Shown here in pieces: positions 25,744 to 62,100 of a stretch of 64,000 nt of DNA (position 1 is its first letter; every line of letters begins with the position of its first letter). Position numbers and translations under genes: made by a program. The DNA comes from Tetracentron sinense (taxonomy: Eukaryota; Streptophyta; Magnoliopsida; Trochodendrales; Trochodendraceae), in assembly GCA_015143295.1 (NCBI GenBank), contig CM026571.1:28982505-29046504 (forward strand). Reading direction: 5' to 3'. Below the pieces are notes generated by a model that was not told the origin of the DNA, searched no databases, and saw nothing but the letters and a program-made list of their open reading frames with translations.

Positions 25744-26340
25744 TTAAGTTGACGCCCTCGTCGACTTGTTCGCTAAGTATTCTTCAATTTTATCTGCGAA
25801 GGGGAGAAGGGTGACGCCTAGTTCCCAACTAGCTTTGGCGTCGGATAGCCTTTTCCATATTACCAAATACTCTATGTGCGCGGGCCTGGTCGGTGATGCT
25901 TGGACATGACGATCCGTAACAATACATTCAACTTTTCTTTGGGGTACGGTCGTTACGGTAGCTGCAGGCCAGTTCGGAGTGTTGCGAGTGGGGTTTTCCT
26001 TGTCTGCATTATACGGCTTTAACACACTGGCGTGGAAGACCGGGTGATATCTGCGAAATGACTCAGGCAGTTTCACCTTATAGGAGACTTTTCCCACCTT
26101 TTCAGTGATAGGAAATGGTCCTTCATACTTGCGAACTAAGTTTTTGTTGCCTTTACGAAAGAACTTTAAGTTAACTGGATTTAGCTTTATCAACACTAAG
26201 TCTCCCACTTTGAACTTATCTTGTATTCTTTTCGGATCCGCAAATTTCTTCATTCTTCTAGCGGCTTTCTCAAGGTATGCTCGGGCAATCTCTGCATTCT
26301 TGTTCCACTCTTTGGCAAACTTGTATGCGCTGGGGCTGGT
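25744..26340 (-). pseudogene. Chromovirus integrase C-terminus and chromodomain
   Basis: From an in-frame TAA at about 26341-26343 the frame runs about 199 codons to a natural stop. It contains KFKVGDLVLIKL, KYEGPFPI, KVGKVSYKVKLPE and HPVFHASVLKPY, the GPY/F-type C-terminal integrase module. A chromodomain-like HIEYLVIWKRL and ASWELGVTL follows. The chromodomain is expected to bind histone marks and guide integration into heterochromatin. The upstream stop separates it from the integrase core. Confidence 0.85.
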
Positions 26341-26343
26341 TCT

Positions 26344-26607
26344 TTAGTAACCGACAACGACTGTATGAGGTGTTAGTGGTTGTTGCCCGGTTACTAGCTC
26401 GAATGGGCTCTTGTTGGAAGAAGAGCTTTGTTGTAAGTTGAAGCAAAATTGAGCGACATTGAGCAAGTTCACCCAATTCTTTTGATTGGCACTGACAAAG
26501 TGCCGGAGGTATTCTTCAAGGAGAGCGTTAAAACGCTTGGTTTGGCTATCAGTCTGAGGATGACTACTTGTTGAGAAGTTGAGCTTGGTCCCGAGAAGTT
26601 TGAACAA
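26344..26607 (-). pseudogene. Chromovirus integrase core, distal part
   Basis: Contains [20 protein letters not shown] and [19 protein letters not shown], the region holding the third acidic residue of the integrase active site; the usual N.R/E context here reads [11 protein letters not shown]. It is in the same frame as the upstream core but separated by TAA at 26635-26637, and it ends at another TAA near 26343. Confidence 0.8.
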
Positions 26608-26634
26608 TTCTGACCAGAATTTTTCCGTGAATCG

Positions 26635-26958
26635 TTAGTCCCTGTCGCTCGCAATGTTCTGAGGCACACCCCAGTATTTCACCACATTCTTCATGAACAA
26701 GTAAGTTGCTTCTTCTGCTGAGCAGTGCAAAGGTGAGAGGATGAAAGTAGCATACTTTGAGAATCTGTCGATCACCACCAGGATCGACCCGAACTCCCCC
26801 ACTTTTGGCAAGGCCGAAATGAAGTCCATGGAGACACTCTCCCATGGTCTCCTAGGGATAGGTAATGGCTCCAAGAGCCCAAGAGGCCTATTCCTTTCCA
26901 CCTTATCTTGTTGGCACACAAGACAAGTATTCATGTATTCTGTAATATCATCTCGCAT
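26635..26958 (-). pseudogene. Chromovirus integrase zinc finger end and catalytic core
   Basis: CLVCQQDK is the CxxC half of the HHCC finger. The first catalytic Asp follows in SMDFISALP, then VVIDRFSKYATF and a stretch ending NIASDRD, where the second catalytic Asp lies. A TAA follows immediately where the coding frame should continue into [10 protein letters not shown]. Confidence 0.85.
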
Positions 26959-27044
26959 ACGAGGTCAGTAGTATCCCCGTTCTAGCAAGGCATATGTACG
27001 ATGCCATCCTTGATGGCCTGCCCAAAGAGTATCATGACACTCTT

Positions 27045-27473
27045 TTATAGATCCTTCCTTAGGTCCCCCATCCCTGGGACAAAGATGCGGCTTCCTTTTG
27101 TGTAAAGAAGTCCATCGTTGATCCAGAAGCGACGAGTCTTGCCACTTTCAACTAGTGGCCAAATTACCTTCGCCTGGTGATCGGTCTTCAACCCTTCACG
27201 GATCTTATCATGCATGGTATACTGCACCCGTTGCACACTCCTGTGCATCACTTTCTTGAGGACCGCAAGTTCTGCTTTGCGACTTAAGGCATCGGCAACA
27301 TTGTTGTACCGACCCGGTTTGTACTCTAACTCAAAATCAAATTCCGCTAGCAACTCTTGCCAGCGCGCTTGCTTGGACGTGAGTTTCTTCTGCGTCATGA
27401 AGTGAGACACGGCAACATTGTCGGTCTTCACCACAAATTTTGATCTAAGTAGTGCCTCTACACCCGAAGGCAA
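27045..27473 (-). pseudogene. Chromovirus RNase H C-terminus and connection
   Basis: KFVVKTDNVAVSHFMTQKKL and GRYNNVADALSRK are the C-terminal RNase H landmarks. The frame is shifted by one base relative to the upstream RT. It breaks again at about 27045; the expected continuation KECHDTLWAGHQGWHRTYAL, with the HH half of the integrase finger, lies in another frame. Confidence 0.85.
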
Positions 27474-28681
27474 TGCACCACGGCAAGTAACTCTTTCTCT
27501 TGAGCCGTGTAGCGACGCTCCGCTTCAGATAATTTCTGGCTCTCATAAGCAACCGGATGTTCTTCTTGCACCAACACTCCTCCGATAGCATAGTCTGACG
27601 CATCAGTCTGTACTTCAAAAGACTTCACCAAGTCTGGCAGTGCAAGAACAGGATGTTGGGCCACGGTAAGCTTCAGTCTCTCGAAGGCTTCCTGGCACTC
27701 CCTTGACCATACCCAAACATGCTCATTCTTAAGTAGGTCAGTCAATGGTGCTGCAGCTGCTGAATAGTCTTTAATGAACTTACGATAGTAATTCACAAGG
27801 CCTAGGAAAGACCGCAGCTTGGTGGTAGTCGTAGGTGGCTCCCACTCTTGAATAGATCGGATCTTATCCTCCTCCATTCTCACTTTTCCTTCGCCCAACA
27901 CATGGCCAAGGAAACTAATGTGCTCCTGTGCAAATGAGCACTTCTCCTTCTTCACGTACAATTGGTTCTCCTTTAGCAAGGCCAACACCTTTTGCAAATG
28001 CTCAACATGTTCTTCAAGAGTTGAGCTATACAGCACAATATCATCCAAATAGACCACAACGAACTTGTCCAGGAACTCATGGAATATCTGGTTCATCAAT
28101 GTTGAGAAGGTAGCTGGGGCGTTGGTAAGACCGAAAGGCATCACCATGAATTCGAATGCGCCATATCTCGTCACGCAAGTCGTTTTAGGTTCGTCGCCCT
28201 CCGCGATGCGAACTTGATAGTAGCCTGATCGCAAATCAAGCTTACTGAAGTACTTGACTGTCCCAAGTTGGTCGAACAAATCGGCAATCAACGGGATGGG
28301 ATACTTGTTCTGCACGGTCAACTTGTTTAGCGCTCGGTAATCCACGCAAAGCCTCAGACTCCCGTCATGCTTGCGCTGGAAGAGGATTGGTGCCCCAAAT
28401 GGTGCCTTGGAGGGGCGAATGAAGCCTGACTCCAAGAGATCATCAAGTTGCTTCCGAAGTTCTGTGAGCTCCGGAGGGGCCATACGATAAGGGGCTTTCG
28501 CAGGCGGCTTAGCCCCGGGAACAAGTTCTATCTCATGATTAATTGTTTGACGAGGAAGAAGGGACTTTGGCAACTTGTCGGGCATCACGCTAGCAAACTT
28601 TGCTAACACCTCGGTCACTTCCTTCGGAACTGGATCCTGCTCTAGTTGAGACTCTTCTCTCAACGTAGCCAAGTAAGTCAT
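27458..28681 (-). pseudogene. Chromovirus reverse transcriptase and RNase H
   Basis: The longest intact frame of the element, 407 codons. RT motifs occur in order: LRLCVDYRALN, YFSKLDLRSGYYQVRI, FEFMVMPFGLTNAPATF and VVVYLDDIVLYS with the YLDD catalytic box. FLGLVNYYRKFI follows, then the RNase H start FEVQTDASDYAIGGVLVQ. It begins directly after an in-frame TAG that separates it from the protease. It ends at TAG (expected Trp) close to a one-base shift. Confidence 0.92.
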
Positions 28682-29320
28682 CTATCTCTTCTTCAACCCT
28701 TTCTTAAGCTGTAGGGCCGAAAGCATCTTCTCTCCACCTTTGCTTGCCACTGTTGGAATCATACATGAAGAGTCACCAAAGATGCACAGCGATCGCAGGT
28801 ACGACATTGGCACGGCCTTAGATTCCTGCAAGAACTCCATCCCCACAATGACCTGAAAGTCATCCATGGGAATCGCTGTCAAGTTAGTCTTTCCTGACCA
28901 AGCTCCCACTTCAATCGATACCCCCTTGGCTACCTCGTGAATGGGCTTCGCTGCTGAGTTCACAGCTTTGATGCGATTTGAATTTTTCTCCAGCTTCAAT
29001 CCCAGTCGCTTAGCTTCGCCTTCCGCAACAAAGTTATGTGTCGCCCCCGTATCCACCATGGCCCGGGTGGCCTTCCCATTGATCTTCAAATCAACGAACA
29101 TGAGTCCTTTTGACTGTGGCGCCTTCTCATCACCCTGAGTCTTAAGAGCATTTAGCAACCTGATGGCTCTCATCCTAGGTTGCTCTTCCTCATCATCATC
29201 ACTCTCGGACAGTTCCTCGTGCATAGCCGAGTTACTCACCGATGCCTGTAGAGCATTGAGGGCTTGTTTCTGCGGACAAACTGCTACTCGGTGTGGTCCA
29301 CCACATAAGAAGCACTGCAT
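28682..29320 (-). pseudogene. Chromovirus zinc knuckle and aspartic protease
   Basis: A CCHC-type knuckle CFLCGGPHRVAVC opens the frame. The protease active site is AMVDTGATHNFV (DTGA). A flap-like IPMDDFQVIVGMEFL follows. It is in frame with the upstream gag across a single TAG at 29333-29335 and in frame with RT across a single TAG at 28682-28684. Confidence 0.88.
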
Positions 29321-29332
29321 CGGCTTGGAACC

Positions 29333-30283
29333 CTAACCTTTTGAGGTTGAAGCTTCTTTGGTCGGCCCGGACTTGCCATTGCTATGCTTCTTTCCATTTG
29401 ATGGTCGAGAAGATTTATTGTGGCTAGTATGGGTCGAGGTCGCCTTCTTCTTGTTAGGGTCACTTGTGGAGTAGTCATTCAGACGCTCTGCTGCTGCTTG
29501 TGCTGAAGCTAAGTCTTGAACACGTTGCCTCTGCAACTCGGTCTGTGCCCAAGGTTTCAATCCCTCCATGAAGTAGAACATCTTGTCTTTCTCGGACATG
29601 TCCTTGATGTCTAGCATGAGGGCCGAGAATTGCTTCACATATTCACGCACCGTGCCTGTCTGATGCAACTGTCGCAAATTCCTCCTAGCGATGTACTCCA
29701 CGTTCTCGGGCAAGAATTGGGCTTTTAACTCCCGCTTCAAGTTCGCCCAAGTATCCACGATGCATCTCCCATTCTGAATGTCATCGTATCGTGTACGCCA
29801 CCATAACTTGGCATCACCCGATAGATACATTGTTGCTGTTGAGACCTTGGCTTCCTCTGATTCCTGTCTCACGGCTCGGAAGTACTGTTCCATTTCGAAC
29901 AAGAAATTCTCAAGCTCTTTTGCATCTCTCGCACCACTGTACGAGCGAGGCTCTGACACCTTCACTCGACTGTATGTCTCGGTAGGGCCATGAGGGTGCG
30001 AACCAACTGCCATGGTAAACACATTCAACCGGTTTGAGAGCTCTTCAATCTTGGCCTGGAGAGCATCCACTGTCCCCTTCACGTCCTCGGTCAAGGTCTC
30101 TACTGATTCGGCCAACTCCTGGTGTCCTTGTTCCATGTTGCTTACTCGGTCATCCATCTGTACCATGGTATGCAACATCCCATCAATCTGTGCTGTCTGG
30201 GCTTCCAAATCGTCCAGACGATCCTTGTTAGTGCGCGCTCCTGTCCCCTGTGCCATGTCTTCTAGCCTTGAATACACGGTCAC
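29333..30283 (-). pseudogene. Chromovirus gag (capsid)
   Basis: 316 codons. The N-terminal third is a heptad-like coiled coil (residues about 20-90). The gag capsid region follows, with YLSGDAKLWWRTRYD, WANLKRELKAQFLPEN and LRQLHQTGTVREYVKQFSAL, then a basic Ser/Thr-rich tail. The first Met is close to the primer site, as expected. It ends at TAG just before the zinc knuckle; the following codons remain in frame, so one base change separates gag from the rest. Confidence 0.88.
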
Positions 30284-30303
30284 GACCTTGCTCTGATACC
30301 AAC

Positions 30304-30409
30304 TGTCACGGGCAATTTACGTTGCCAGGTAAATCCCGTGCGGCACTTGATTAACGGATTGATCAAGTGCCGCACGGGATTTACCTGGCAACGTAAATTG
30401 CCCGTGACA
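30304..30409. repeat. 106-bp near-perfect palindrome in place of the 5' LTR
   Basis: The left arm begins TGTCACGGGCAATTTACG and the right arm ends with its reverse complement. The arms are about 51 bp with one visible mismatch (T versus C next to the loop) around the 4-nt loop CGGA. The left arm equals the terminal 51 bp of the LTR as seen at 25272-25322 with two differences. The loop is TCCG in the 3' LTR, the opposite orientation. Confidence 0.9.
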
Positions 30410-32627: not shown

Positions 32628-33787
32628 TTAGAGAGCCTCAGAGACTGATCGAGGAATAGACACTGAATCAACCTGACCAAGAAAAGACTGATAGGAAGCT
32701 GAAAGACCTTGATAAGAGATAAACTTGGCAATCGGATGATCAGCACTACAAGAAAAACTCAAATGGGTGGAGGGATGACGATCACGGGGATGGTACCAGG
32801 GAGGTACAATATCAGAAGCTAAGGGAAGACATGAAGTACTTGAGTCCGGAGAAGATTCTGGCGGAGGAACATGAGAGCGCGGACGACGAGGAACATTAGA
32901 GCGTGGACAACGAGAAACATAAGGGAAGGGATCAGTAGTGATTACCAGAGGAAGAGACCTGCTAGTGAGTGAAGGAGTCTCCTCAACAGGTCTCGGCAAG
33001 GAAGGAGTACCTGAAAAGAAATGAACAATTTCCAAAAAAGTAACATCCAATGAGTGATAAATGTGACAAGTAACCGGATCATAACAACGATACCCCTTAA
33101 ACATGCTAGAATACCCTAAGAAGATACATCGAATGACCTTATCATCGAGTTTGGTACGAGAAGGATTGCGGTTCTGAACAAAGCATGTACACCCGAACAC
33201 ACGAAGTATGATAGGAAAAATGGTGCTATCAGGATGAAGGACATGCGTAAGGGTTTTGCCTTGCAAGATTCGACTGGGAGTGCTATTTATACGATATGTG
33301 GCAGTGACGACAGCCATATGCCAGAAATATTTGGGTACTTTCATACCACATAAGAGACATCGAACAATAGACATAATGTAGCGGTTTTTACGCTCCGTCA
33401 CACCATTCTGCTCAGGAGTGTAAGGACAGGTAAGCTGTTGGAGAATACCACTTTTGTTAAGTTCACTTCAAAATTCATTTGTGATATATTCCCGAAAATT
33501 ATCAGACCAAATATTCTGTACAGCAGTATTATATTGGGTTTTGATTATTTGCAGAAAATTAATAAAGTGGGAAAACACCTTAGATTTTTCTTTATAAGAT
33601 AGACCCAAGTGCAACGAGTGTAATCATCTATGAAAGTGACATAATAACGATGTTGAGATAAGGCAGTCACTTGAGAAGGACCCCACACATCAAAGTGTTT
33701 AAGATCAAAGGCACTAGATGTACGGTGCATGCGAGAGATATAAATAGTGCGAGTATGTTTTGACAATTCACACACCACACACCACAC
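32628..33787 (-). pseudogene. Copia integrase
   Basis: DVWGPSQV and FIDDYTRCTWVYLIKK carry the first catalytic acidic residues (frame 33545-33787). TERKNRYIMSIVRCLLCGM and KYFWHMAVVTATYRINSTPS follow in frame 32628-33401, then the C-terminal FGCTCFVQNRNP and KVIRCIFLGYSS. A shift near 33410-33540 separates the parts. Confidence 0.85.
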
Positions 33788-34415
33788 ATTTAAATTTAAT
33801 GTTCTTGCATGCTTTATTCAAAGGCAGAAAAAGCCAACATAAATACTGAAAATTTGCATGCCCTAAACGAGCCTGCCACAAATCAAGAGTATGACTAGAA
33901 AAAATAGAATACTCAAAAACAGGCAGAACAAACGCCTGAAGATTAGATGAAGACACTTTGGAAGACAGAGGATCTCCAAAGTAGTAGAGTTCATCGGGCT
34001 CATATCCCCTGCCAAAAATCTTCTTCAAAGTCAAGTCCTGCAAAAGACAATGATCGGGTAAGAAAATAACAGCACAATGAAGGTTTTTCGCAAGTAGACT
34101 AACTGAAAGAAGATTATAAGCAAAGTTAGGAACATAGAAAACAGAGGGAAGAGTGATGTCTGAAGACAAATGTGCATTACCTTGACTACTGATTTTGATA
34201 GAGGACCCATCGGCAATACGAACGGACTAAGTAACAGGGGTAACTGGAGATGATAAAATGGATAACTCACCAGTCATATGATTATTGACTCTGGAATCCA
34301 AAATCCAAGTGGGATTGCCTGACTTAACATGAAGAGTAGTAGATATACCTATAGCAAGATTAGCCGTAGGACTGACAGACGAGATAGTCGCCGAAGAAGC
34401 AAGACCCAAGCCCAA
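33768..34415 (-). pseudogene. Copia protease and GAG-pre-integrase region
   Basis: WILDSRVNNHMTGELS corresponds to the copia protease site WILDSGA..HMTG, but the Gly is changed to Arg, so the active site is probably dead. FYVPNFAYNLLSVSLLAKN and the later DLWQARLGHANFQYL belong to the pre-integrase region. The frames change near 34230. Confidence 0.8.
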
Positions 34416-34535
34416 ATGTAACTGAAGCTAAGCAATTTGTGACTGAAACTGACTATAATCTGAAATAGATGGAGCAGGTAGTACCTCAGCAATGATGCCT
34501 ATACGGGGAGCCCATTTCCCTCGATCTTTGTTCCC

Positions 34536-35441
34536 CTAGTCCCGATTCTGAGAATAACGTTGCTTTAACTCAGGATGGACATCAAAGCAACAATCAATGA
34601 CATGACCAGACTTGCGGCAAAGCTGACAATAAGGGGGAAGAGAGCCTGAAGGAGCAGCAAAGGACATCTGATCAAGAACTGGTGGAGACAACTCAGGTGA
34701 CAGAGTCGGTGGAAGAAGATGACACCAACGTCCATCTCCATTCATAGTAGCAAATGTCTCGTAAAGAGAAGGCATAGGAGAGGAGTTTAAAATTTGAGCC
34801 CAAAGAGCCTCAAACTTAGGTTTCAAACCCATTAGAAATTGGTACGTGTACCTACAATCAATACGTTTAGACTTAACAACAACATCAGTAGGGAAGTCAC
34901 TAAGGGGCTCATATTAAGCCAACTCCTCCCATCTAGTTTGGAGGTAGCCAAAAAAGTCCGCAACTAAGAGTCCCAAGGCAGCCTAGGAGGTATGAGAGAT
35001 ATCCCGATAGAGCTCGAAGATCCGAGAGTCATAGTGTGCATGAGCATACATCTTAGTCAAGGCACTCCATAGACCATGGACAGTATCGTGATACATGAAC
35101 ATATTGTAGATCCTATCTTCCATTGAGTTGAAGATCCAACCCAGAATAATATAGTTGTCCAAGTCCCACTGTTCAAACTTGGGATCAGATGCAGTCGGCC
35201 TAGGCTCTTTTCCAAGAATCCACCCAGTCTTGCGTTTTCCACCAAGATAGAGACAGAATGAGCAAGACCAAGCATGAAAATTTTGTCCATTCAACAACAC
35301 GCTCATGACATGTTGAGCAAGTGTGGATTGAGTGATAGACAGATCTATTCGAGAAACCAAGAAAGCTGGAGGGGCAGCTGGGGCAACTTCTTTTTCAGGT
35401 TCAATCATTACGCAAGTAGTCCAACAACACAAAATGGACAT
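34536..35441 (-). pseudogene. Copia gag
   Basis: QHVMSVLLNGQNFHAWS, GKRKTGWILGKEPRP and YHDTVHGLWSALTKMY define the UBN2-type gag (34983-35441). After stops, LKPKFEALWAQILNS leads to a zinc knuckle CQLCRKSGHVIDC (34536-34832). The gag is split by stops at about 34833-34982. Confidence 0.85.
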
Positions 35442-35809
35442 ATAAAGAACAAAGGTCGGATAATGATCGGCAACAATAGAACCATAGCCGGGAAAAAATG
35501 GCTGAATTGACAGGGGTAATCGGACACTCGGCTACCCAACCAATAGACAAAGAGCTCGGGAGGGATCTAAGACATCATGAACAGGCCGAGAAGGCCAAAG
35601 GTGGCAGCATAGAGGCTGCGCAAAGGATCGGAAGGCCGCTGGTGGCTGGTGGTGGTTGGCCGCCTGTCGTGAGGGTTGTTGGTTGGTGGCTGGTGGCCTG
35701 GGGCTGTCATCTGGCTGGTGGTGTGGTGCTGTGGTGTGGTGGTGGTGGTGTTGTGGTTTGGTGGTGGTTGGCGGCTAGGGTTTTGTCTCTTGGGTTGGCT
35801 TTGATACCA

Positions 35810-36451: not shown

Positions 36452-36508
<57 letters not shown>
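36452..36508. repeat. (AT)n microsatellite, about 57 bp
   Basis: Uninterrupted AT dinucleotide run. Confidence 0.95.
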
Positions 36509-36510
<2 letters not shown>

Positions 36511-36563
36511 TTCTACTAATAAAAGTACAAGGAGTATGCAAAACTTTTTGTGGACGTAATCAC

Positions 36564-38737
36564 TGAAAGTATGCCTCTTTTTAATTTTAGAAACACAGTT
36601 CTTGGGGGGCATACATCGAATCCCAAGATTTGATTAAGATTCTAATTGATTTTATTCAATGAAGATAAGAATAACATTCACCTTTGCGACTTTGAAATTG
36701 TTAATTCAAATCCACGTTTTAATAGTACTCGCAAAACTTCACAAGTGTCAAGTCTCCTGTCGATTCACACGAACCTTTTTTTTCCTTTAAAGCTTTCTCT
36801 AAAGGAAGCTAATGGCCCTTCCAAATTTCCAGCTCTAGGAATCTTGAATAAAAGATACAATCTTTTGTTATAAAGAACCTTTCTTGATTCTTTTCTTGAT
36901 CTTCAAAATTAAGAACCCAAGAGAGAAGAAGATGGGGGAATATGGGGCTGATCGTACACCACTAGAGAGAGGGGTTGGGCGTGAGATTTGAGGAGAGGGG
37001 AGAGGTTTCCAAATTTGGAAATTCTGGAAAATTAAAGAATGCCCAAAGCCTTGGACGTCCAACCCTCTTTATAGGCTTTATTGGTTGCTTGCAACCAAAG
37101 TTTCCTAATCCTTATCCAATAAGGATTCTTCAATTAGTTTCCTATTTGGTTTCTCCATAACTAATTAGGAATAATCAAAATAGAAACTAATCTCATCCAT
37201 TAGTGTCCAACTAATCTTATTCTAATTTAATTAGGATTCCTTGATTAACAAGAAACTAATAGACTCCTTGTCCAACAAAGAATATTTAATTAGTAACTAA
37301 CTCTAACTAACTAACTAACCTTATCTAATAAGGATATTAGTTATTGGAAACTAATTAAAATAATAACAATTATTATTCCTCCTTGAAGTGGGTGTCAGAC
37401 CCTAGGTGGGTTCCACTCCACACGTCCCCAATGGGTTCTAAACCCTTTTAGTCACTTTAACTATTCTTTTAAAATATTCCCCAATGGGTCCTACCCATTT
37501 GGTTTTTCACATCTAATGTGATTCCACCTTTTAGAGCTTCACTATACCATATAGTGATCACTTAGATAAATTAATTAATTTAATTAATAATTAAATTAAA
37601 TACTTTAAGAAGGTTCTTGTGTGTGAGATCTAAAGGGATCTCCTATTTCCGGTTGTGGGACCAAGTACTTCACCTTTTGGTTAAAGCATTGTTATTAGGA
37701 AACACCTTTCCTACACTCCATTAGGATTATAGAATTTTATCTATATCCCTGGACTTCCACCAATCACAATTAATGTCCATTAACACAATGTGATTAACCT
37801 CCAGAAATTAGAGAATTGCTTGTAAGTACCATCTCACAATATATTTATAAATAAATCTTTCCACATTCCGATATCACTTGTAAGCTTCCGAGATTGGAAC
37901 AATTCCACTGTCTTAGTCCCTAGCTTATGAATAGAACCCTTTCCCATGATTGCCTTTTCATGGAATTAAACCTCCAAAACACTTTTGAAGAAACATTAGA
38001 AAAGAACTGACATATATATTTATATATACTTTTCCATATTAAAAATATCAACTTCGATAAAAACCATTGTACCGAAAATCACCAGTACTGGATTTAACAG
38101 TTCAGTTCAACAAGTATCACCTTGATATCATTATCTCCAATTAAGGAGTTGTAGATTTCTTATTGAGTGTTTACACATTTCTCTAAACATTGTGTACATG
38201 ATCCAACGTACCCGGAGTTAGTCCTGTGTATTGGACATTGACGATTGGCACATCAAAGCCATATAGACAAATATTTGAGAAGATGTTAACCTCTCAGGTC
38301 TAAGGATAATTTGTTAAATGGATAACCCTAATACAATCTGACAGTGTATTCCATAGTGTATCCATTATTGACCCCGTTCAGTATTATGTACTTGCTACAT
38401 ATACTCACATGTTAGTCAATAGTCACCACTCTCTGTGAATGAGATTCATCACACTATCTCATAGAACTACACATGTGCAAGCCATGATGAAGTACGGCGC
38501 CTAACCAGTACTCTAGAGGCTTTGAATAATATTAGGTTTACAAGGAACCGGAAAATCATATCTCCTCGCAACCTTTGCATGATTTTCCTACAATGTTTCC
38601 TATGGAACTTTATGTCATCATCAAATGAGACAGTAATTAATATAAATACCCTTTATAGTTGGTTTTGTGAATATGATGCTTGTCTAATCAACATAGAAAA
38701 GTCTTTTATTGGCTTTCGAGGGCATATATGTCCAACA
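36564..38737 (-). mobile_element. Solo LTR (2,174 bp) with 5-bp target duplication
   Basis: On the minus strand it begins TGTTGGACATATATGCCC and ends GGCATACTTTCA, with TG...CA ends. ATCAC is present at 36559-36563 and 38738-38742. No coding region and no second LTR. Orientation is taken from the TGTTGGACAT start, which is common in plant LTRs. Confidence 0.75.
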
Positions 38738-38742
38738 ATCAC

Positions 38743-40270
38743 CCTTCATTATATATAAAAAAAAATTATAATTTATAGTTGAAAATTATAATTTATAATA
38801 TTATGTGAGTCCCATGAGACTCACTATTACGTATTAAAAATCTAATTTGCTATTTTTTTGGATAAGGACTCTCTATTAGTCGAGAGTTAAGTAGGATTCA
38901 TTAAAGTTAGAATTAGTCTAGGGATACTCCCAAAGTGTACTCCCATATATAATCCCAAACCTTAACCGTTTATCTCAATTATTAAGCGGTTAGGATTAAA
39001 TCTAAAGTGGAATTAGAAAAGACAAAATAAGCCAACTCCAATCTTGACCCTTAGTGGTTGGTTATAAACGGTTAGGATTAGGGAATATATTTAGGAGTAT
39101 AATTGGAAGTGCCCATAGACGGACTCTTAAAATTATACTAATCTAATGTGGGACCCTCCGGACAAACAGAGCTAAATCATAGAGCCTTTCGAGTCGGCCA
39201 TCAGCATGACTGATGAGAGAGCAAGTGAGCACATATTAACTGGCTAGAAGGCGCAACATGCGGTTGAGCATGATGGGAGCCTCTAGGTTGTGAGTGGGCA
39301 GGTGTTAGATACATGCTAATTTTATATTAAAGTTTGATACATGTATTTGAGTACAAGTAGGTTACTAAATACACAAGGGAATACGTAACTAAGAGCCAAT
39401 CCTTAATTGATTGAGTTACATATATCTTAGTAGATTCCGGGTGATCTTTAAGTGATAAGGATTATCTTTCCTTTATGAACCTGCCCCAGATATGAAATTA
39501 TAACAATAAAAATCTGCTAGCTGTTGTCGTGAGACAGATGAAAGGAATTGGAAAGAAGCCCCCTTCCTTGAGAGAGAAATTAATAGAGTGAGAGAGCCAA
39601 GACCCTCTACCGTGAGAGAAAGAGAGAGCTTGAACCACTGGTTTAGCAGTAGAAAACCCCATATCCCTCCCAAATAAATCAAAAGAACAAGAGAGTTCGA
39701 TTTGAACTCTCCCTCCTTTTTAGAACTTTTGATAAGGCACAAAGGACAGAGGAAAAAAACAGAAGAAAATTGAAAAATAAGGACTCTAATTTACTATTTT
39801 TAAAGATAAGGACTCTCTATTAGTAGAGAGTTAGAAGGACTCTTGAAAATTATATTAATCTAATGTGAGACCCATGGAACTCTTTGGCTATTTTTATGGA
39901 TAAACACTATCTATTTATATATTTTTTTATATTTTAAAGTCAAAAGCACTAATATTCTAACCATGAAAAAAAATAATAATGTCATATTAAAAGATTATTA
40001 CGATTCCTTGCTTTTAATACATTTATAAGTGGGACAACTAAATAATCTAACTATTAGTAACTCTTTTCTAATATAAAATTTAAATTAATATAAGAGCTAT
40101 TAAATTTAATTACTGAAATATATTTATATAAACATAATAATATTTTAAGAAATTATTTAATATAAAAAGAGTAATGTGACATCTAATGAAAACATATTAA
40201 AAATTATATTAGATTTTTTAAAAAGTTAGTTTTTAATTAAAGATGAAAAAGTTATACGTGCTGTAATTTT
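38743..40270. other. AT-rich region, no supported gene
   Basis: The block GGATAAGGACTCTCTATTAG followed by AGAGTTA recurs near 38871 and 39778, and a GACTCTT/AATCTAATGTG block recurs near 39122 and 39829. These are older repeats. A short ORF at 39473-39742 has no domain. Confidence 0.4.
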
Positions 40271-40639
40271 ACTAGTATATATCTTTATTATTACTAGTAA
40301 GTGTGCACGTGCTTTGCACGTATTAATTTTCTATTAATATAAATATACAAATTTAATATAATAAAACAAAGAAAAATCTTGGAAAAGTCATAGTTCATAA
40401 ACAAAAGTGCAAAAAATGTACTACACAACACTCCTATAGCGTCATTTATATAGAATATTATTAATAATTAGATAAACAAACAACCTAATTACATAAGATA
40501 GAACACATAAAAGTAAGGACTATCTAATAGAAAAGGAAAAGAAAAATAAAGTCACAAGGACACACCTTTGTTAGCCCATGGAAAGTAGTGGGCCCACAGA
40601 GGATCGAGGTCTCCACTATAACTTATGATTGGGCAATAA

Positions 40640-40970
40640 CCTTCTGCCTTCCTACAAGGGCCCAAAAGAGCTCCTCAAACAGCATCGCAGTCTGATAACC
40701 AAGGACCTTGCATTGTCTATGAGGCCATCCTTCGCATAAGCATCAACCAAAAAATTCATAGCTAGTGTTTTCGAGTTGAACCCAAGTTTCAAAGTAAGAG
40801 CATGCACATGCTCAATGTGCTGAACATACTCATCAAAGCTGCCACTATTGGCCTTCAACTGCTCCACGAAAACTCTTAATCCACAAACCAAATCAGCAAA
40901 ACCTTTATAGTCTTTTGCCACTTTGAGATTCATATTCTCATAATTCCGAGTAACTTAATTGGAGTAGGAA
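40640..40970 (-). pseudogene. Chimeric gene fragment: BLOS2-like exon fused to PPR-like segment
   Basis: An open frame starts in NYENMNLKVAKDYKGFADL and runs through GLRVFVEQLKANSGSFDEYV. I recognise this as the central part of plant BLOC-1 subunit 2 (BLOS2). At about residue 42 it switches to VHALTLKLGFNSKTLAMNFL and VDAYAKDGLIDNAR, which has the pattern of a pentatricopeptide repeat. The two families are unrelated, so this is a fusion of fragments from two genes. A third short open stretch (TAMLFEELFWALVGRQK) follows in another frame. Too short to be functional. Assignments rest on recall of family motifs. Confidence 0.6.
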
Positions 40971-41057
40971 ACTATAAAGAGATAATTATAGGCCTTTTAC
41001 CCTCAACACTGAGTCCAAAAGCAAAGTTATTCTTTCATATTAAGAAACCCAAAATTT

Positions 41058-41243
41058 TAAAACACTTACCTAACGATAAGGATCAAATGTCTTAACTCTA
41101 CATAGATGAGTAAGGACTCTCTAATAGTCCTTCAAAGTCACCCAAATCTTTAAAACACTTACCTAACTATAACGATCAAATCTTTTAACTCTACATAGAT
41201 GAGTAAGGACTCTCTAATAGTCCTTTAAAGTCTCCCCTAATAG
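41058..41243. repeat. 93-bp tandem duplication
   Basis: TAAAACACTTACCTAAC begins copies at 41058 and 41151. Both contain AACTCTACATAGATGAGTAA and GGACTCTCTAATAGTCCTT. It lies inside the Helitron-like element. Confidence 0.8.
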
Positions 41244-41622
41244 AGTCCTACGAATAATAGATAAACGTTTAACTATTAATTTTTATTGAGTCCTACTAAC
41301 AAAAATTATCTCTTAAAGCTTTGAATACCCTAAGTTATTTATAAAATAAATTAAATTAAAGTGTATTTTGGTCAGCATAAAGTTTAGGTTACTCCTTGTA
41401 CTTTTATTAGTAGAATGATGATGCGAGAGCCTTTCGTAGATGAAATTTCCGAAATTCCCAAACTACCCTACCCTTATTTAAATACAAAACATTGATTTAA
41501 TGTTTTACTTTAATTCTCAAACTACCCCTTGCATTTGATTTGATGTTTTACTTTAATTCCCAAACTACCCCTTGCTCATCTATCTATTTAGAATCACAGC
41601 CAATCAGGATTGAACTCGGGGA

Positions 41623-41931
41623 GAGTTCAATCGCACCCGCGGGTTAACACGTGTCCCTTTTAACTCCTATTAACTGTGGTTAACTCCTTCCCCTCGCGCT
41701 CACGTGCATTGCACGTGCCACTAGCGAGTTCAATCGCACCCGTGGGTTAGCACGTGTCCCTTTTAACTTCTATTAACTGTGGTTAACTCCTTCCCCTCGC
41801 GCTCACGTGCTTCACACGTGCCACTAGCGAGTTCAATCGCACCCATGGGTTAACACGTGTCCCTTTTAACTCATATTAACTATGGTTAACTCCTTCCCTT
41901 GTGCTCACGTGCATCACACGTGCCACCCGCT
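41623..41931 (+). repeat. Three tandem 103-bp copies of a Helitron 3' end
   Basis: Units start with GAGTTCAATCGCACCC at 41623, 41726 and 41829. Each holds a hairpin near its end: CACGTGCATTGCACGTG in unit 1, with weaker versions in units 2 and 3. CCACTAG follows in units 1 and 2, while unit 3 ends CCACCCG. Hairpin plus CTAG is the Helitron 3' terminus. The corresponding 5' end was not found. Confidence 0.7.
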
Positions 41932-43050: not shown

Positions 43051-43393
43051 GGAGCCAAATCATCTCCGGGCAAATCCGGTTATCACCCCTAGAGGTCACC
43101 ACGTGTCTCCTTTGACACCCCTTAACCGTGGGTAAGGTTCACCCACCCATTTTTGTTTTTTTTTTTAAATATTAATTATTTTTTTAAAATTAAAAAACTG
43201 TTTTTAAAATTAAAAAAACTCTAAAAACAGTTTTTTAATTAAAAAAAAAGAATTAATATTTAAAAAAAAAAACCAAAAATGAGTGGGTGAACCTTACCCA
43301 CGGTTAAGGGGTGTCAGAGGAGACATGTGGCGACCTCTAGGGGTGATAACCAGATTTGCCAAATCCGGTTATCACCGTAGAGGATTTGACTCC
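43051..43393. mobile_element. Mutator-like foldback MITE, 9-bp target duplication
   Basis: The TIRs are GGAGCCAAATC on the left and GGAGTCAAATC read from the right. Flanks ATTCTTGAT (43042-43050) and ATTCTTAAT (43394-43402) match at 8 of 9. Nearly the whole 343 bp folds on itself around a poly-A/T core. The arms contain the recurring CCACGTGTC...GACACCCCTTAACC...TTCACCCACCC motif. Confidence 0.75.
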
Positions 43394-43446
43394 ATTCTTA
43401 ATACGTGCGTTTTTTTTTAAAGTATTCGTGTACGTGTATATTATAC

Positions 43447-43783
43447 TATTTTCTATTCCGGTTCATACAACATATCTTCCAATTAATTTAATAAGAAAAT
43501 GTTACGTCACCCTTTTAATTATTGTTCTTCTTTCTTAATTAAGTGATGGGTTAATTGCTCACCTTAACCCACTAACATTCTATTTTTTAAAATTACAATT
43601 AATTAAATCTCATTGGCTTCTATTTTCTATTTTGGTTCATACAACATATCTTCTAATTGTTTCAATAAGAAAACACCCCGTCACCCTTTTAATTATTGTT
43701 CTTCCTTCCTAATTAAGTGATGGGTTAATTGCTCACCTTTACTCACTCACATTCTATATTTTTTTAATTACAATTAATTAAAT
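43447..43783. repeat. Two tandem copies of a 174-bp unit
   Basis: TTTTCTATT-CGGTTCATACA starts copies at about 43449 and 43623. Shared landmarks are CGTCACCCTTTTAATTATTG and AATTAAGTGATGGGTTAATT. Confidence 0.8.
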
Positions 43784-49926: not shown

Positions 49927-50937
49927 TCAAGTGGAGACTGGTGATAAGTCATAGGGCAGTGGGGGAGGGGTCATAGCAACATCAGCCTCAGCATCTCGAA
50001 TCACCTCATCAGGATGCTTGGCAGTATGAATCCTCCTTTTAGTGGCCTTCATCAGGGCATTGTAGCTCTTATCCCACTGATGTTCCCCAAACCTTACACT
50101 CGTAGTCATCGGCTCATCCTCTCTAATTACATGACCCTGATGCTCTAAAAGCTGCATAATCATGTTACCAAATAATAGGTGCCAAATTAGGGGTCACTAT
50201 TGCCTCAATGTAAATCCTTTGATTACTCTATATACATACTCCGCGGCATTCACCCAGTGCCCCTTCCACATATCATAAAGTGCGTCTAACGTGACTCCTC
50301 TTCTTTCAGTGATGTGCCCTATGGAGTAAAGGTTAAGCCGGAAAATAGAGTCAACAAACCAAAGTGTAGGGGGGAGGTAAGACCTACAAGTTCAATTTTT
50401 TTTGTTGTTACCATATCTCCCTCTCCACATCTCCCTAATGATCTCATGCAGGGTTGCTGAAACCCGAGGTGCAGGTACATAGGGGAACCCATGGTAGGAA
50501 TTCAAGGGAGATCCTATAGCTTGGGCAATGGATGAGGTAACTGTGACCTCAAAGGTTCGACCCTCAACAGTGACTTCAAGGGCATCCGGGCCCTCCTCAT
50601 TATTCTCATCCTCTTCATACTTTTCCTCACCCTCTTCAGAATTTTCCTCACTGTCCTTTTTTTTATCTTTTCCTTTTTGAACCATGTTTTGATAAAATAA
50701 GCGGACCAATCTAGGGTATGCCTTAGTTGCTGATCCAAAAAGGCACTGGAGGCCACTATTTTCCAACTCCAAAATGGTGGGTGCCGTATCTAGGGATCTT
50801 CTAAAATTTTCTACATGGAATTCGGTTTGAGGAGAGACCGCCCAAGTGGCAAATTTTCCTAATGGTTGCTCTACTCGGCCTTGGGTAGGTCTACTAGAGC
50901 TAGGTCTGTTGGCCACTTTCTTTCTTTTGGGTGCCAT
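49927..50937 (-). pseudogene. Athila env-like ORF (plant transposon protein domain)
   Basis: The first part (50392-50937) opens MAPKRKKVANRPSSS. It has YPRLVRLFYQNM, an acidic block rich in E and D, and DALEVTVEGRTFEV followed by AQAIGSPL, the pattern of the ORF found after pol in Athila elements. A frameshift lies in an eight-base A run at about 50397-50404. A later frame (49927-50163) has TTSVRFGEHQWDKSYNALM. The function of this ORF family is unknown. Confidence 0.7.
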
Positions 50938-51369
50938 TTGGTATAAAACCTAGACTAGGATTTTTCACAAACACGTGGTGTGCCCCCTTTTTAAACACTT
51001 CACAACTCAATCACAACCCCACCAAATCCAAACACGGCCAACCTGGCCTCCAAACACAATCCCTTCCTCCACACAATGCCAACCCGGTCTCCAAATAATT
51101 CCTTCCTCCACACAATCACATGAAAGAAAGCAAAATAATGGAAAAAAAAATTGGATTTGGGTATTTACCTTGTAAAGGAATTTTTTGCTCTTACAAACCC
51201 CAAAATCTTCAATCCGCGTGATTTCTCTTTGTATCACTTTTCCAATCAAAACAAGAGCATGAACAAATGATAGGAAGAGAGAAGAAGAAGAAAATGGAGG
51301 AGAATAGGAGAAGAAATGAGAAGGAATGGGAAGAGGCACGAATGTGGACTGAGGTTTTTAAATGAATCT

Positions 51370-51540
51370 GGGTGACTGCGATTGATCGCAAAGCAACTGT
51401 GATCGATCGCACATGTGGTAGAAGCTTGCTGGATTTTAGCCACTGTTTGTGATCTATCGCAGAATTCTACCATCTATCGCAGATGTGGCCGAAACTTTCT
51501 GGAAATTAGCCACTGTCTGCAATCTATCGCAAAGCCCTTT
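51370..51540. repeat. Cluster of (T)GATCGATCGCA-like palindromes
   Basis: At least five variants of ATCGATCGCA, ATCTATCGCA and CGATTGATCGCA occur within 170 bp. Similar clusters lie in both LTRs (about 47508-47655 and 54033-54180). Confidence 0.7.
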
Positions 51541-51729
51541 TTTTTATAGGTGGATTTATAATCCACCCCAAATTTAGACCCAATCTATCTAAAGGAATTT
51601 TAGTATAAAACCGATGGGTTGCCTCCCAACAAGCACTAAGTTTTTCATCTTCAGCTAGACGTCCTTAATTAAATCAACCGTCTTGGTAGACGGGATCATG
51701 CGAAACCAAGGTTTCTATCAATTCACCGG

Positions 51730-52322
51730 TGACATACCCTCAACATAGGGTTTCAATATTTGACCGTTAACCTTGAAGAGATTCCCATCTTTAGGGTCTT
51801 TAAGTTCAAATGCTCCATGAGGGAATACTGTGGTCACAATGTAGGGGCCATCCCATTGGGAGCAAAGCTTACCGGGGAAGAGGCGTAATCTAGAATTAAA
51901 AAGTCAAACTTTCTTATTGGGGACAAAAGAATTTCGTAAGATTGTCTTGTCATGGAAAGTTTTAGTTTTGGCTTTATAAATTTTTGCACTTCATATGCAT
52001 CATTACGTATCTCTTCTAATTCGGAGAGTTGGAGTTTTCGATTCGAATCCGCTAGAGCCATATCGAAGTTAAACTTCTTAATGGCCCAAAGGGCTTTGTG
52101 TTCCAACTCCATCGGAAGGTGGCAAGCTTTGCCAAAAATGAGGCGATAGGGAGATATTCCAATTGGGGTCTTAAAAGTCGTAAGATAATCCCAAAGTGCA
52201 TCATTAAGCCTTATCGACCAATCTTTTCGATTTGGCCTCACTGTTTTCATGAGGATGTTCTTGATCTCCCTATTAGATACCTCGCCTTGGCCGCTCATTT
52301 GGGGATGGTAAGGAGTAGCCAC
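51730..52322 (-). pseudogene. Athila integrase core and C-terminus
   Basis: [52 protein letters not shown] and [13 protein letters not shown] are the Athila-type integrase landmarks; the third active-site acid lies in EVSNREIK. The final part ([20 protein letters not shown]) continues in another frame to about 51730. Confidence 0.85.
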
Positions 52323-52359
52323 TTTATGAGTGATGGAGTATTTGAGGGTTAGAGCCTCA

Positions 52360-53081
52360 AAATATCAATTTAGGAAGTGTTTTCCTCCATCACTTATAAT
52401 TGCTCGCAGTGTGCGAAAACGACTAAAAATATTCTCTTGAAGGAACTTGACCACAACCTTGTGATCATTAGTCTTATTGGCAACCGCTTCCACCCACTTG
52501 GGGATATAGTTCACTGCCACCAATATATATCCAAATCCAAAGGATGGCGGGAATGGACCCAGAAAGTCAATACCCCATACATCGAAAATTTCTACAACTG
52601 GAATTGGGGAATAGAGACATCATTTCTCTTCAGAATATTGCACCTAATTGTTGGCACCTTAAACAAGCCTGACAAAATTCATGGGCATCTTTGAAGATTA
52701 AGGGCCAATAAAAACCACTTTGTAAGACCTTAGTTGCGGTCTTTTTCCCTCCAAAGTGACCTCCTCATGCAAGAGAGTGGTAAAAGGTAAGAATACTTTG
52801 GAATTCACTCTCGGGCACACATCTTCGGATCACTTGGTCTAAGCAATTCCTAAACAATTCCGGATCCTCCTATAAATAGTATTTGATTTGGGAAAAGAAA
52901 TAGGATTTGTCTTGTTTAGACCATTGAAATGGGACTTGTCCAAAAGCGAGGTAATTGACCATATCAACGATGGTTGAACTTGATTTACCTCAAACTGTTG
53001 CTCGTCTGGGAAAAAATAATGGACGGGGCAAGACTTTAAAGAAGAGTCGACTAGGATTCTAGATAAATGGTCTACGACCAT
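52360..53081 (-). pseudogene. Athila RNase H end, integrase finger and core start
   Basis: VVDHLSRILVDSSLKSCPVH (RNase H C-terminus), then in shifting frames FCQACLRCQQLG (CxxC of the integrase finger), a [13 protein letters not shown] segment with the first catalytic Asp, and [10 protein letters not shown] with the second. Numerous stops. It starts abruptly at the 5' LTR, marking a large deletion. Confidence 0.75.
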
Positions 53082-61469: not shown

Positions 61470-61958
61470 CTAATATCTACCCAACATGCCAACTGCAAAT
61501 GCTATGTCCAGACGGGTGTAGACCATAGTATACATTAAACTTCCAATTTCTGATGCATAAGGAATGTGTTCCATCTCTTTTTGTTTAAGGTTGTTATTGG
61601 GACACTGAAACATGCAGAATTTATCACCTTTAACAATCGGTGCCACTCCCGGAGAACAATGCTGCATATTAAAATGTTTTAATATTTTATCAATATAAGC
61701 TTTCTGAGACAAACCAAGAAGACCACGAGATCGATCACGATGGATTTCAATTCCTATAACAAACGATGCTTCACCTAAATCTTTCATTTCAAAATTCTTT
61801 GACAGAAATTGTTTGGTTTCAAACAATATACCCAAATTACTGCTAGCTAGCAATATATCATCAACATAGAGAATCACGAAAATAAGCTTACTCCCACTGA
61901 TTTTCAGATATATGCATTCATCCACAACATTTTCTTTGAAACCAAAAGATGTAATCAC
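61470..61958 (-). pseudogene. Copia RT, catalytic part
   Basis: Contains FVILYVDDILLASSN with the YVDD box, then FEMKDLGEASFVIGIEIHRD, GLSQKAYIDKILKHFN and YASEIGSLMYTMVYTRLDI. Upstream, VDECIYLKI marks the beginning of this block. Confidence 0.88.
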
Positions 61959-62100
61959 TTCATCAAATTTTATATACCATTGTCGAGAAGCCTATTTTAA
62001 ACCATATAGAGATTTGTTTAACTTGCATACCAAATGCTCCATGCCTTTCAACACAAATCCTTCTAGTTGTTGTATATAAACATCTTCATGTAAATTACCA

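What the first reader, a model, noticed from the sequence alone, without database searches (positions are those of the whole stretch)
40294..41414. Helitron-like element carrying a fusion of BLOS2-like and PPR-like gene fragments
A minus-strand open frame reads as the middle of plant BLOC-1 subunit 2 (GLRVFVEQLKANSGSFDEYV) and then switches without a stop to a PPR-type repeat (VDAYAKDGLIDNAR). It sits in an element ending with the hairpin ACGTGC-AAA-GCACGT and CTAG next to T. Helitrons are known to capture and fuse gene pieces, so this looks like a recent capture whose frame is still open across the junction at about 40803.
Basis: partly seen in the sequence, partly recalled or inferred. Interest (0 to 1): 0.75.

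Follow-up and report, generated by a model that had tools for sequence, protein, structure and literature searches.

The report
Helitron with captured, reshuffled gene fragments
A short jumping DNA element in a relict Chinese tree carries broken pieces of two ordinary genes joined together; it is a well-documented example of a known kind of genome shuffling, and the joined reading frame looks like an accident rather than a new gene.

Summary
Window 40294-41418 (minus strand) is a 1,125-bp non-autonomous Helitron of what is very probably Tetracentron sinense. An empty site beside a related copy shows clean insertion between A and T. The inner frame joins an exon piece of the BLOS2 gene on C10 to a piece of a PPR gene on C20. 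At least 14 copies carry the PPR piece; the 24-nt 5' terminus occurs 1,720 times in the genome. The pieces came stepwise. Related copies carry a longer BLOS2 piece followed by an unidentified segment X. In the window's subfamily, PPR replaced X and the BLOS2 tail. The claim of a recent capture whose frame is 'still open' fails. The original junction was, by comparison with the donors, in frame. Seven of 13 copies with a 1-nt loss are out of frame, and an eighth through another deletion. In the window and its sister copy, a further 35-nt deletion brought the halves back into frame. I find no good sign of selection on the fused frame. Stepwise Helitron capture is already published for maize. This is a new member of a known kind, of modest interest.

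The parts
40294..41418 (-). whole non-autonomous Helitron, 1,125 bp; on the minus strand it is preceded by host A (41419) and followed by host T (40293)
   Evidence: A|TCAT at 26 of 28 and CTAG|T at 26 of 28 loci counted; 13 further loci with a missing or rearranged end were left out of the count; precise empty site beside the related BLOS2+X copy L051
   Evidence: 24-nt terminus TCATTCTACTAATAAAAGTACAAG at 1,720 places with at most 1 mismatch, reversed control 0
40964..41414 (-). 5' part shared with the non-PPR copies; contains a 93-nt tandem duplication (41047-41236)
40812..40961 (-). piece of the BLOS2 (BLOC-1 subunit 2) exon, donor C10:29729603 or its paralogue on C12
   Evidence: 86% and 83% over 151-152 nt; BLOC1_2 match
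40805..40812 (-). BLOS2/PPR junction with the scar of a 35-nt deletion between GTG repeats; a T of ATTGATGC is also missing
   Evidence: alignment of 13 copies and both parents
40696..40811 (-). first PPR piece, donor C20:16361412 (895-codon PPR gene)
   Evidence: 89% over 112 nt in this copy, 92% over 151 nt in the undeleted copy C2; only non-element match among 15
40652..40695 (-). second PPR piece from about 0.35 kb further down the same donor, read in another frame
   Evidence: CTTGTTT stands twice in the donor, 346 nt apart, at the two edges
40652..40954 (-). fused open frame, 100 codons stop to stop, 93 from the first ATG
   Evidence: N/S counts compatible with neutrality
40294..40633 (-). 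3' part shared with the non-PPR copies
   Evidence: of 27 fetched non-PPR loci, 82-84% in 17 (L049-L065), 77-84% or split in 7, no match in 3 (L040, L041, L043)
40307..40321 (-). 3' hairpin ACGTGC AAA GCACGT, 9 nt before CTAG
40294..40297 (-). 3' terminus CTAG, followed by T

Best explanation
A non-autonomous Helitron that gathered gene pieces in steps and was then copied around the genome by Rep/helicase supplied elsewhere. An older line carried segment X. It gained about 190 nt of a BLOS2 exon. In one branch, X and the last roughly 40 nt of the BLOS2 piece were replaced by about 195 nt of a PPR gene. That branch multiplied to at least 14 copies. The fused frame is a by-product: in frame at first, put out of frame by a 1-nt loss, and brought back into frame in the window's lineage by a 35-nt deletion. 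Shown: ends, insertion site of a related copy, donors, copies, shared BLOS2 start and different BLOS2 ends, junction states. Inferred: rolling-circle mobilisation in trans, that X came before BLOS2, that PPR came in a single event, the order of the junction changes, and absence of function.
For: Ends and A|T target. 14 PPR-bearing copies plus one PPR gene are the 15 matches to the PPR segment. Of 41 fetched element loci, all 23 that hold BLOS2 without PPR have the piece running to exon position 195-201 and then X; all 13 that hold BLOS2 with PPR stop at 158-163. The 13 PPR copies form one clade (100/99) next to the BLOS2+X copy L040 (100/100) in a tree with 4 of the 23 BLOS2+X copies (bootstrap not settled). 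Junction states 72 in frame, 71/76/67 out, 36/33 in. N/S counts fit neutrality per piece. 151 Helitron_like_N matches show possible enzyme sources.
Against: No clean empty site for a PPR-bearing copy: C16b gave only weak hits across the joint (69-72%), and C4b sits at the edge of an abundant repeat, with hits running at most 29 nt past the joint. The 1-nt state needs 3 changes on the poorly resolved tree, so it arose more than once, spread by conversion, or the tree is wrong. The autonomous partner is not proven. X is unidentified. The pooled N/S test at transition weight 2 gave p = 0.03, though 0.22 at the observed transition bias and no piece alone is significant. The 41 loci are the best-scoring ones: one search scored 40 of 1,369 candidates.
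Confidence: 0.93

Rival explanations
1. The fused frame is a young chimeric gene kept by selection: a BLOS2-PPR microprotein made from several copies.
For: Five of the 13 copies with both halves are in frame across the junction, two of the three in-frame states following separate deletions; N is below expectation in both pieces, and pooled at transition weight 2 p = 0.03.
Against: Eight of 13 are out of frame; indels of 1, 5, 35 and about 39 nt lie in the junction; no significant N/S departure per piece, nor pooled at the observed transition bias; the BLOS2 part holds only profile positions 25-74 of 96 and the PPR part less than one repeat; no protein covering both halves among 27 hits of about 55-175 residues.
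Confidence: 0.04
2. BLOS2 and PPR pieces were taken together in one event, and X replaced PPR later.
For: Order of events rests on comparison of living copies only.
Against: X-bearing copies keep about 40 nt more of BLOS2, collinear with the gene, which PPR-bearing copies lack (23 of 23 against 0 of 13); an X-for-PPR swap could not restore it.
Confidence: 0.02
3. Not a Helitron but a MITE or other repeat with a chance CTAG and palindrome.
For: This copy encodes no Rep or helicase: its longest frame is the 100-codon one.
Against: Exact A|T insertion without duplication at one empty site, TC start, hairpin 9 nt from CTAG, 1,720 termini; no inverted repeat in the list of 14 nt or more joins the two element ends.
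Confidence: 0.01

Closest known systems
Stepwise gene-fragment capture by maize Helitrons (ZmhelA2/A3/A4, helitron_mc1; Dong et al. 2011, PMC3288121; abstract and section 9 read)
   Same: Non-autonomous Helitrons with shared ends gaining different gene fragments in successive steps, and losing inner sequence.
   Different: Other plant lineage; here the step is a replacement that trims an earlier captured piece, and the junction frame is traced through loss and return.
Gene-capturing Helitrons of Brassica napus (PMC11986588; passages read)
   Same: Pieces from two or more capture events in one element are common there (35.25% of gene-capturing TEs).
   Different: That study is a census by similarity; no frame history was in the passages read.
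HelibatN3 / Helraiser (PMC4778049; passages read)
   Same: TC...CTAG ends, 3' hairpin, AT target; capture explained by reading past the 3' end.
   Different: HelibatN3 captured a promoter and splice donor; here only exon interiors were taken, and the inner position of the pieces does not by itself show which capture model applied.

Membership tests
Helitron | 5' end TC, 3' end CTRR | tested here: met
   TCAT...CTAG in this copy; 26 of 28 loci counted at each end, 13 of 41 left out for missing or rearranged ends (two pairs of the 28 look like duplicate contigs)
[quoted passage not shown]
   hairpin 40307-40321, 9 nt before CTAG; -5.8 kcal/mol, z -2.24
Helitron | insertion between A and T without target-site duplication | tested here: met
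   tandem-duplicated flank of the related copy L051 shows ...TTCAAATA|TATTCTTAA filled and empty; not shown cleanly for a PPR-bearing copy
Helitron | no terminal inverted repeats | tested here: met
   none of 14 nt or more joins the two element ends in the list; shorter ones not tested
Helitron | Rep/helicase encoded by the element or by a partner with the same ends | tested here: inconclusive
   this copy has no long frame; one intact Rep place (C2:1842246) has the exact terminus 5.45 kb upstream on the same strand, 1 of the 9 listed Rep places on C1 and on C2 up to 23.3 Mb, the part for which exact termini were listed; its 3' end was not seen
BLOC-1 subunit 2 (PF10046) | curated score and full domain | tested here: not met
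   28.1 against 33.4 bits, 50 of 96 positions; the intact protein P0001 scores 96.8
PPR protein (PF01535) | curated score; tandem repeats | tested here: not met
   14.8 against 25 bits, one partial repeat; the donor scores 260 bits

The most novel reading that the evidence does not exclude
The BLOS2-PPR frame, lost and regained within one Helitron subfamily, is transcribed and translated from several copies and acts as a lineage-specific small protein, for example by binding BLOC-1 partners, or its transcripts act as small-RNA sources against the BLOS2 and PPR donors.
Probability: 0.04. Interest if true: 0.6.

Novelty: new member of a known kind. Interest (0 to 1): 0.27.

Why it matters
It is a clean case of successive capture, replacement and frame change inside one Helitron family, with donors, intermediates and an empty site all in one genome. 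It warns that an open frame across a captured-gene junction need not be inherited or selected: here it most simply came back by a chance deletion.

Tried and rejected
Identifying segment X: Pfam gave nothing for three strings, PDB nothing convincing (best E 1.1), and the large protein search gave 21 hits, all unnamed or 'hypothetical protein', sharing VTRVVLPRVIMHSRYHYG-like words in the four that I read. The best-matching place outside the BLOS2-bearing copies is a degraded stretch at C2:16660076, 80%.

Empty sites for PPR-bearing copies: not decisive.

Considered and dropped: a single co-capture, a MITE, and a selected chimeric gene (see rivals). Introns at capture edges: not informative, both pieces lie inside open exons. 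Transcripts: no RNA data on hand. Not in print, judged from titles and the start of abstracts in the listings only: Helitron with Tetracentron (one paper, on sandalwood), Helitron with pentatricopeptide and captured (8 papers), stepwise or sequential capture (9 papers, 15 of 27 listed), gene capture and chimeric exons (20 of 24 listed), and frame and chimera (12 papers) showed no description of this family. The word Helitron does not occur in the main text held of the T. sinense genome paper. Most subscription papers are not held.

Full report
Genome. The window is G000:C21:28982505-29046504 in an assembly of 1.161 Gb and 1,479 contigs. The BLOS2 exon on C10 reads exactly as residues 32-120 of the Tetracentron sinense protein P0001 (residue 32 falls on the splice-acceptor bases). 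The published T. sinense assembly (1.17 Gb, 24 chromosomes of 33-65 Mb; PMC7709256, passages read) fits contigs C1 (64.6 Mb) to C24 (33.1 Mb). The species name is an inference, but a strong one.

Element. Read on the minus strand, copies agree on A|TCATTCTACTAATAAAAG at the 5' end and CTAG|T at the 3' end: 26 of 28 loci counted at each end. Of the 41 fetched element loci, 13 with one or both ends missing or rearranged were left out of that count. Loci L032/L063 and L058/L065 share flanks and look like duplicate contigs, so the 28 stand for about 26 insertions. One related copy of the BLOS2+X type, L051, sits in a tandem-duplicated flank whose second unit is empty...GTGTATTCAAATA|TATTCTTAA. This shows insertion between A and T with no duplication and fixes both ends. 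The element is thus 40294-41418. The 24-nt terminus occurs 850 + 870 times with at most one mismatch; the reversed control occurs 0 times. A 20-nt form of the 3' end, GCACGTGCACATTTACTAGT, occurs 93 times exactly. The window copy carries the variant GTGCACACTTACTAG.

Captured pieces. The BLOS2 piece (40812-40961) is 86% identical to the exon on C10 and 83% to the paralogue on C12. The PPR piece is 89% identical over 112 nt in this copy, and 92% over 151 nt in the less deleted copy C2, to an 895-codon PPR gene on C20 (Pfam PPR 260 bits plus E motif). A second short PPR piece comes from further down the same donor, where CTTGTTT stands twice 346 nt apart, and is read in a different frame. The PPR segment has 15 matches in the genome: 14 element copies and the one gene.

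Order of events. The 41 loci compared are those fetched from searches that scored only the best candidates (40 of 1,369), so they are not all copies. Of the 41, 23 hold BLOS2 followed by segment X, 13 hold BLOS2 followed by PPR, 1 holds PPR without BLOS2 (L039, C20b, truncated), and 4 show no BLOS2 match (L041, L043, L044, L045). The BLOS2 piece starts at exon position 10-19 in 35 of the 36 and at 30 in L048; in 7 of them (L046-L048, L053, L058, L062, L065) it is split or partly doubled. It ends at 195-201 in all 23 X copies and at 158-163 in all 13 PPR copies. PPR therefore replaced X together with the BLOS2 tail. In a tree with 4 of the 23 BLOS2+X copies, rooted on L055 by choice, the 13 PPR copies form one clade (100/99) with L040 next to it (100/100); the bootstrap had not settled. 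X-like sequence also lies about 0.3 kb from the family's exact 3' end at places where the BLOS2 searches list nothing, for example C7:34315401, C23:15395223 and C12:31631346, and in L044 and L045. X may thus be older than BLOS2; this is an inference.

Frame. From the BLOS2 anchor to the PPR anchor the distance is 72 nt (in frame) in C13 and C16b. These two keep the ATTGATGC found in both BLOS2 genes, so I take this as the original state. It is 71 (out) in C2, C16, C17, C11, C4a and C1 through loss of one T; 76 (out) in C6, which has the T loss and 5 extra nt; 67 (out) in C15, which keeps the T and lacks 5 nt; 33 in C20, which lost 39 nt (or 38 after a T loss; this cannot be told); and 36 in the window and its sister C4b. 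That counts 13 copies: 5 in frame, 8 out. C20b, which lacks the BLOS2 front, shares state 33. By inspection the window sequence cannot be made from the 72 state by one contiguous deletion; it needs the T loss and a 35-nt deletion. Its five nearest relatives after C4b (C2, C16, C1, C17, C6) all have the T loss, so out-of-frame first, then in-frame, is the simplest order. Against a single origin of the T loss: 3 changes are needed on the poorly resolved tree.

Age and selection. Over columns 61-1060 and 13 copies (C20b left out), window and C4b differ by K2P 0.0089; the other copies differ from the window by 0.026-0.069; the largest distance between any two is 0.075. The last jump is young and the captures are older than the spread; I give no years because no call gave a rate for this tree. 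Nonsynonymous to synonymous counts are 21:12 (BLOS2) and 11:7 (PPR). At transition weight 2 the pieces give p 0.095 and 0.28, at the observed transition bias 0.34 and 0.45; pooled, 0.03 and 0.22. With junction indels of 1, 5, 35 and about 39 nt, I read this as neutral drift, while noting that the pooled crude test leans the other way.

Enzymes. The search for Helitron_like_N gave 151 matches, some of them pieces of one element. One with an open frame of 1,114 codons, C2:1842246, has the exact terminus 5.45 kb upstream on the same strand. Among the 9 listed Rep places on C1 and on C2 up to 23.3 Mb, the only part for which exact termini were listed, it is the only one within 6 kb. Its 3' end was not seen, so the partner is a candidate only.

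Setting in print. Dong et al. 2011 (PMC3288121, abstract and section 9) describe sequential capture and inner loss in maize Helitrons. PMC4778049 (passages) gives the read-through model and the AT target. PMC11986588 (passages) reports multiple capture events in 35.25% of gene-capturing TEs in B. napus. PMC13317346 (passages) reviews capture in plants. The present case fits these and adds the traced junction. The other papers named in search listings were not opened.

Noticed in passing
window 36508-40275 (+): A second Helitron-like element: same 5' terminus (TCATTCTACTAATAAAAGTACAAGGAGTATGC) at 36508 after a TA run, and a degenerate 3' end ATACGTGCTGTAATTTTACTAG|T at 40254-40275, tail to tail with the reported element 18 bp away. 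That the two ends belong to one element is not tested.
   Followed up: partly
window 41623-41931: Three tandem copies of a 103-nt unit, each with a CACGTGCATTGCACGTG-like palindrome resembling a Helitron hairpin and followed by CACTAGC in the first two.
   Followed up: no
window 43060-43380: Long inverted repeat seen by eye around '...AACCGTGGGTAAGGTTCACCCACCC...'; a similar sequence flanks the C13 Helitron copy, so perhaps a foldback or MITE family.
   Followed up: no
window 43446-43783: About two copies of a 174-nt unit in tandem, 88% matches.
   Followed up: no
L005, L003 and window 3' flank: Family members insert beside each other: within about 20 bp an opposite 3' end follows copy C17 and another 5' end follows copy C2, in ATATAT-rich stretches.
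   Followed up: partly
L055 middle (1050-1380) and C2:16660076: Segment X: a conserved segment (DEKLGRMVTRVVLPRVIMHSRYHYG, intron-like gap, AFSENFTGLELEDGGGRGTSG) of unknown host gene, carried by many copies of this family.
   Followed up: partly
window 25744-30316, 32628-35531, 50392-52364, 61470-61991: Long minus-strand frames that read by eye as LTR-retrotransposon gag, protease, reverse transcriptase and integrase (no family search made); the Helitron lies in a transposon-rich stretch. No Rfam match in the window.
   Followed up: no
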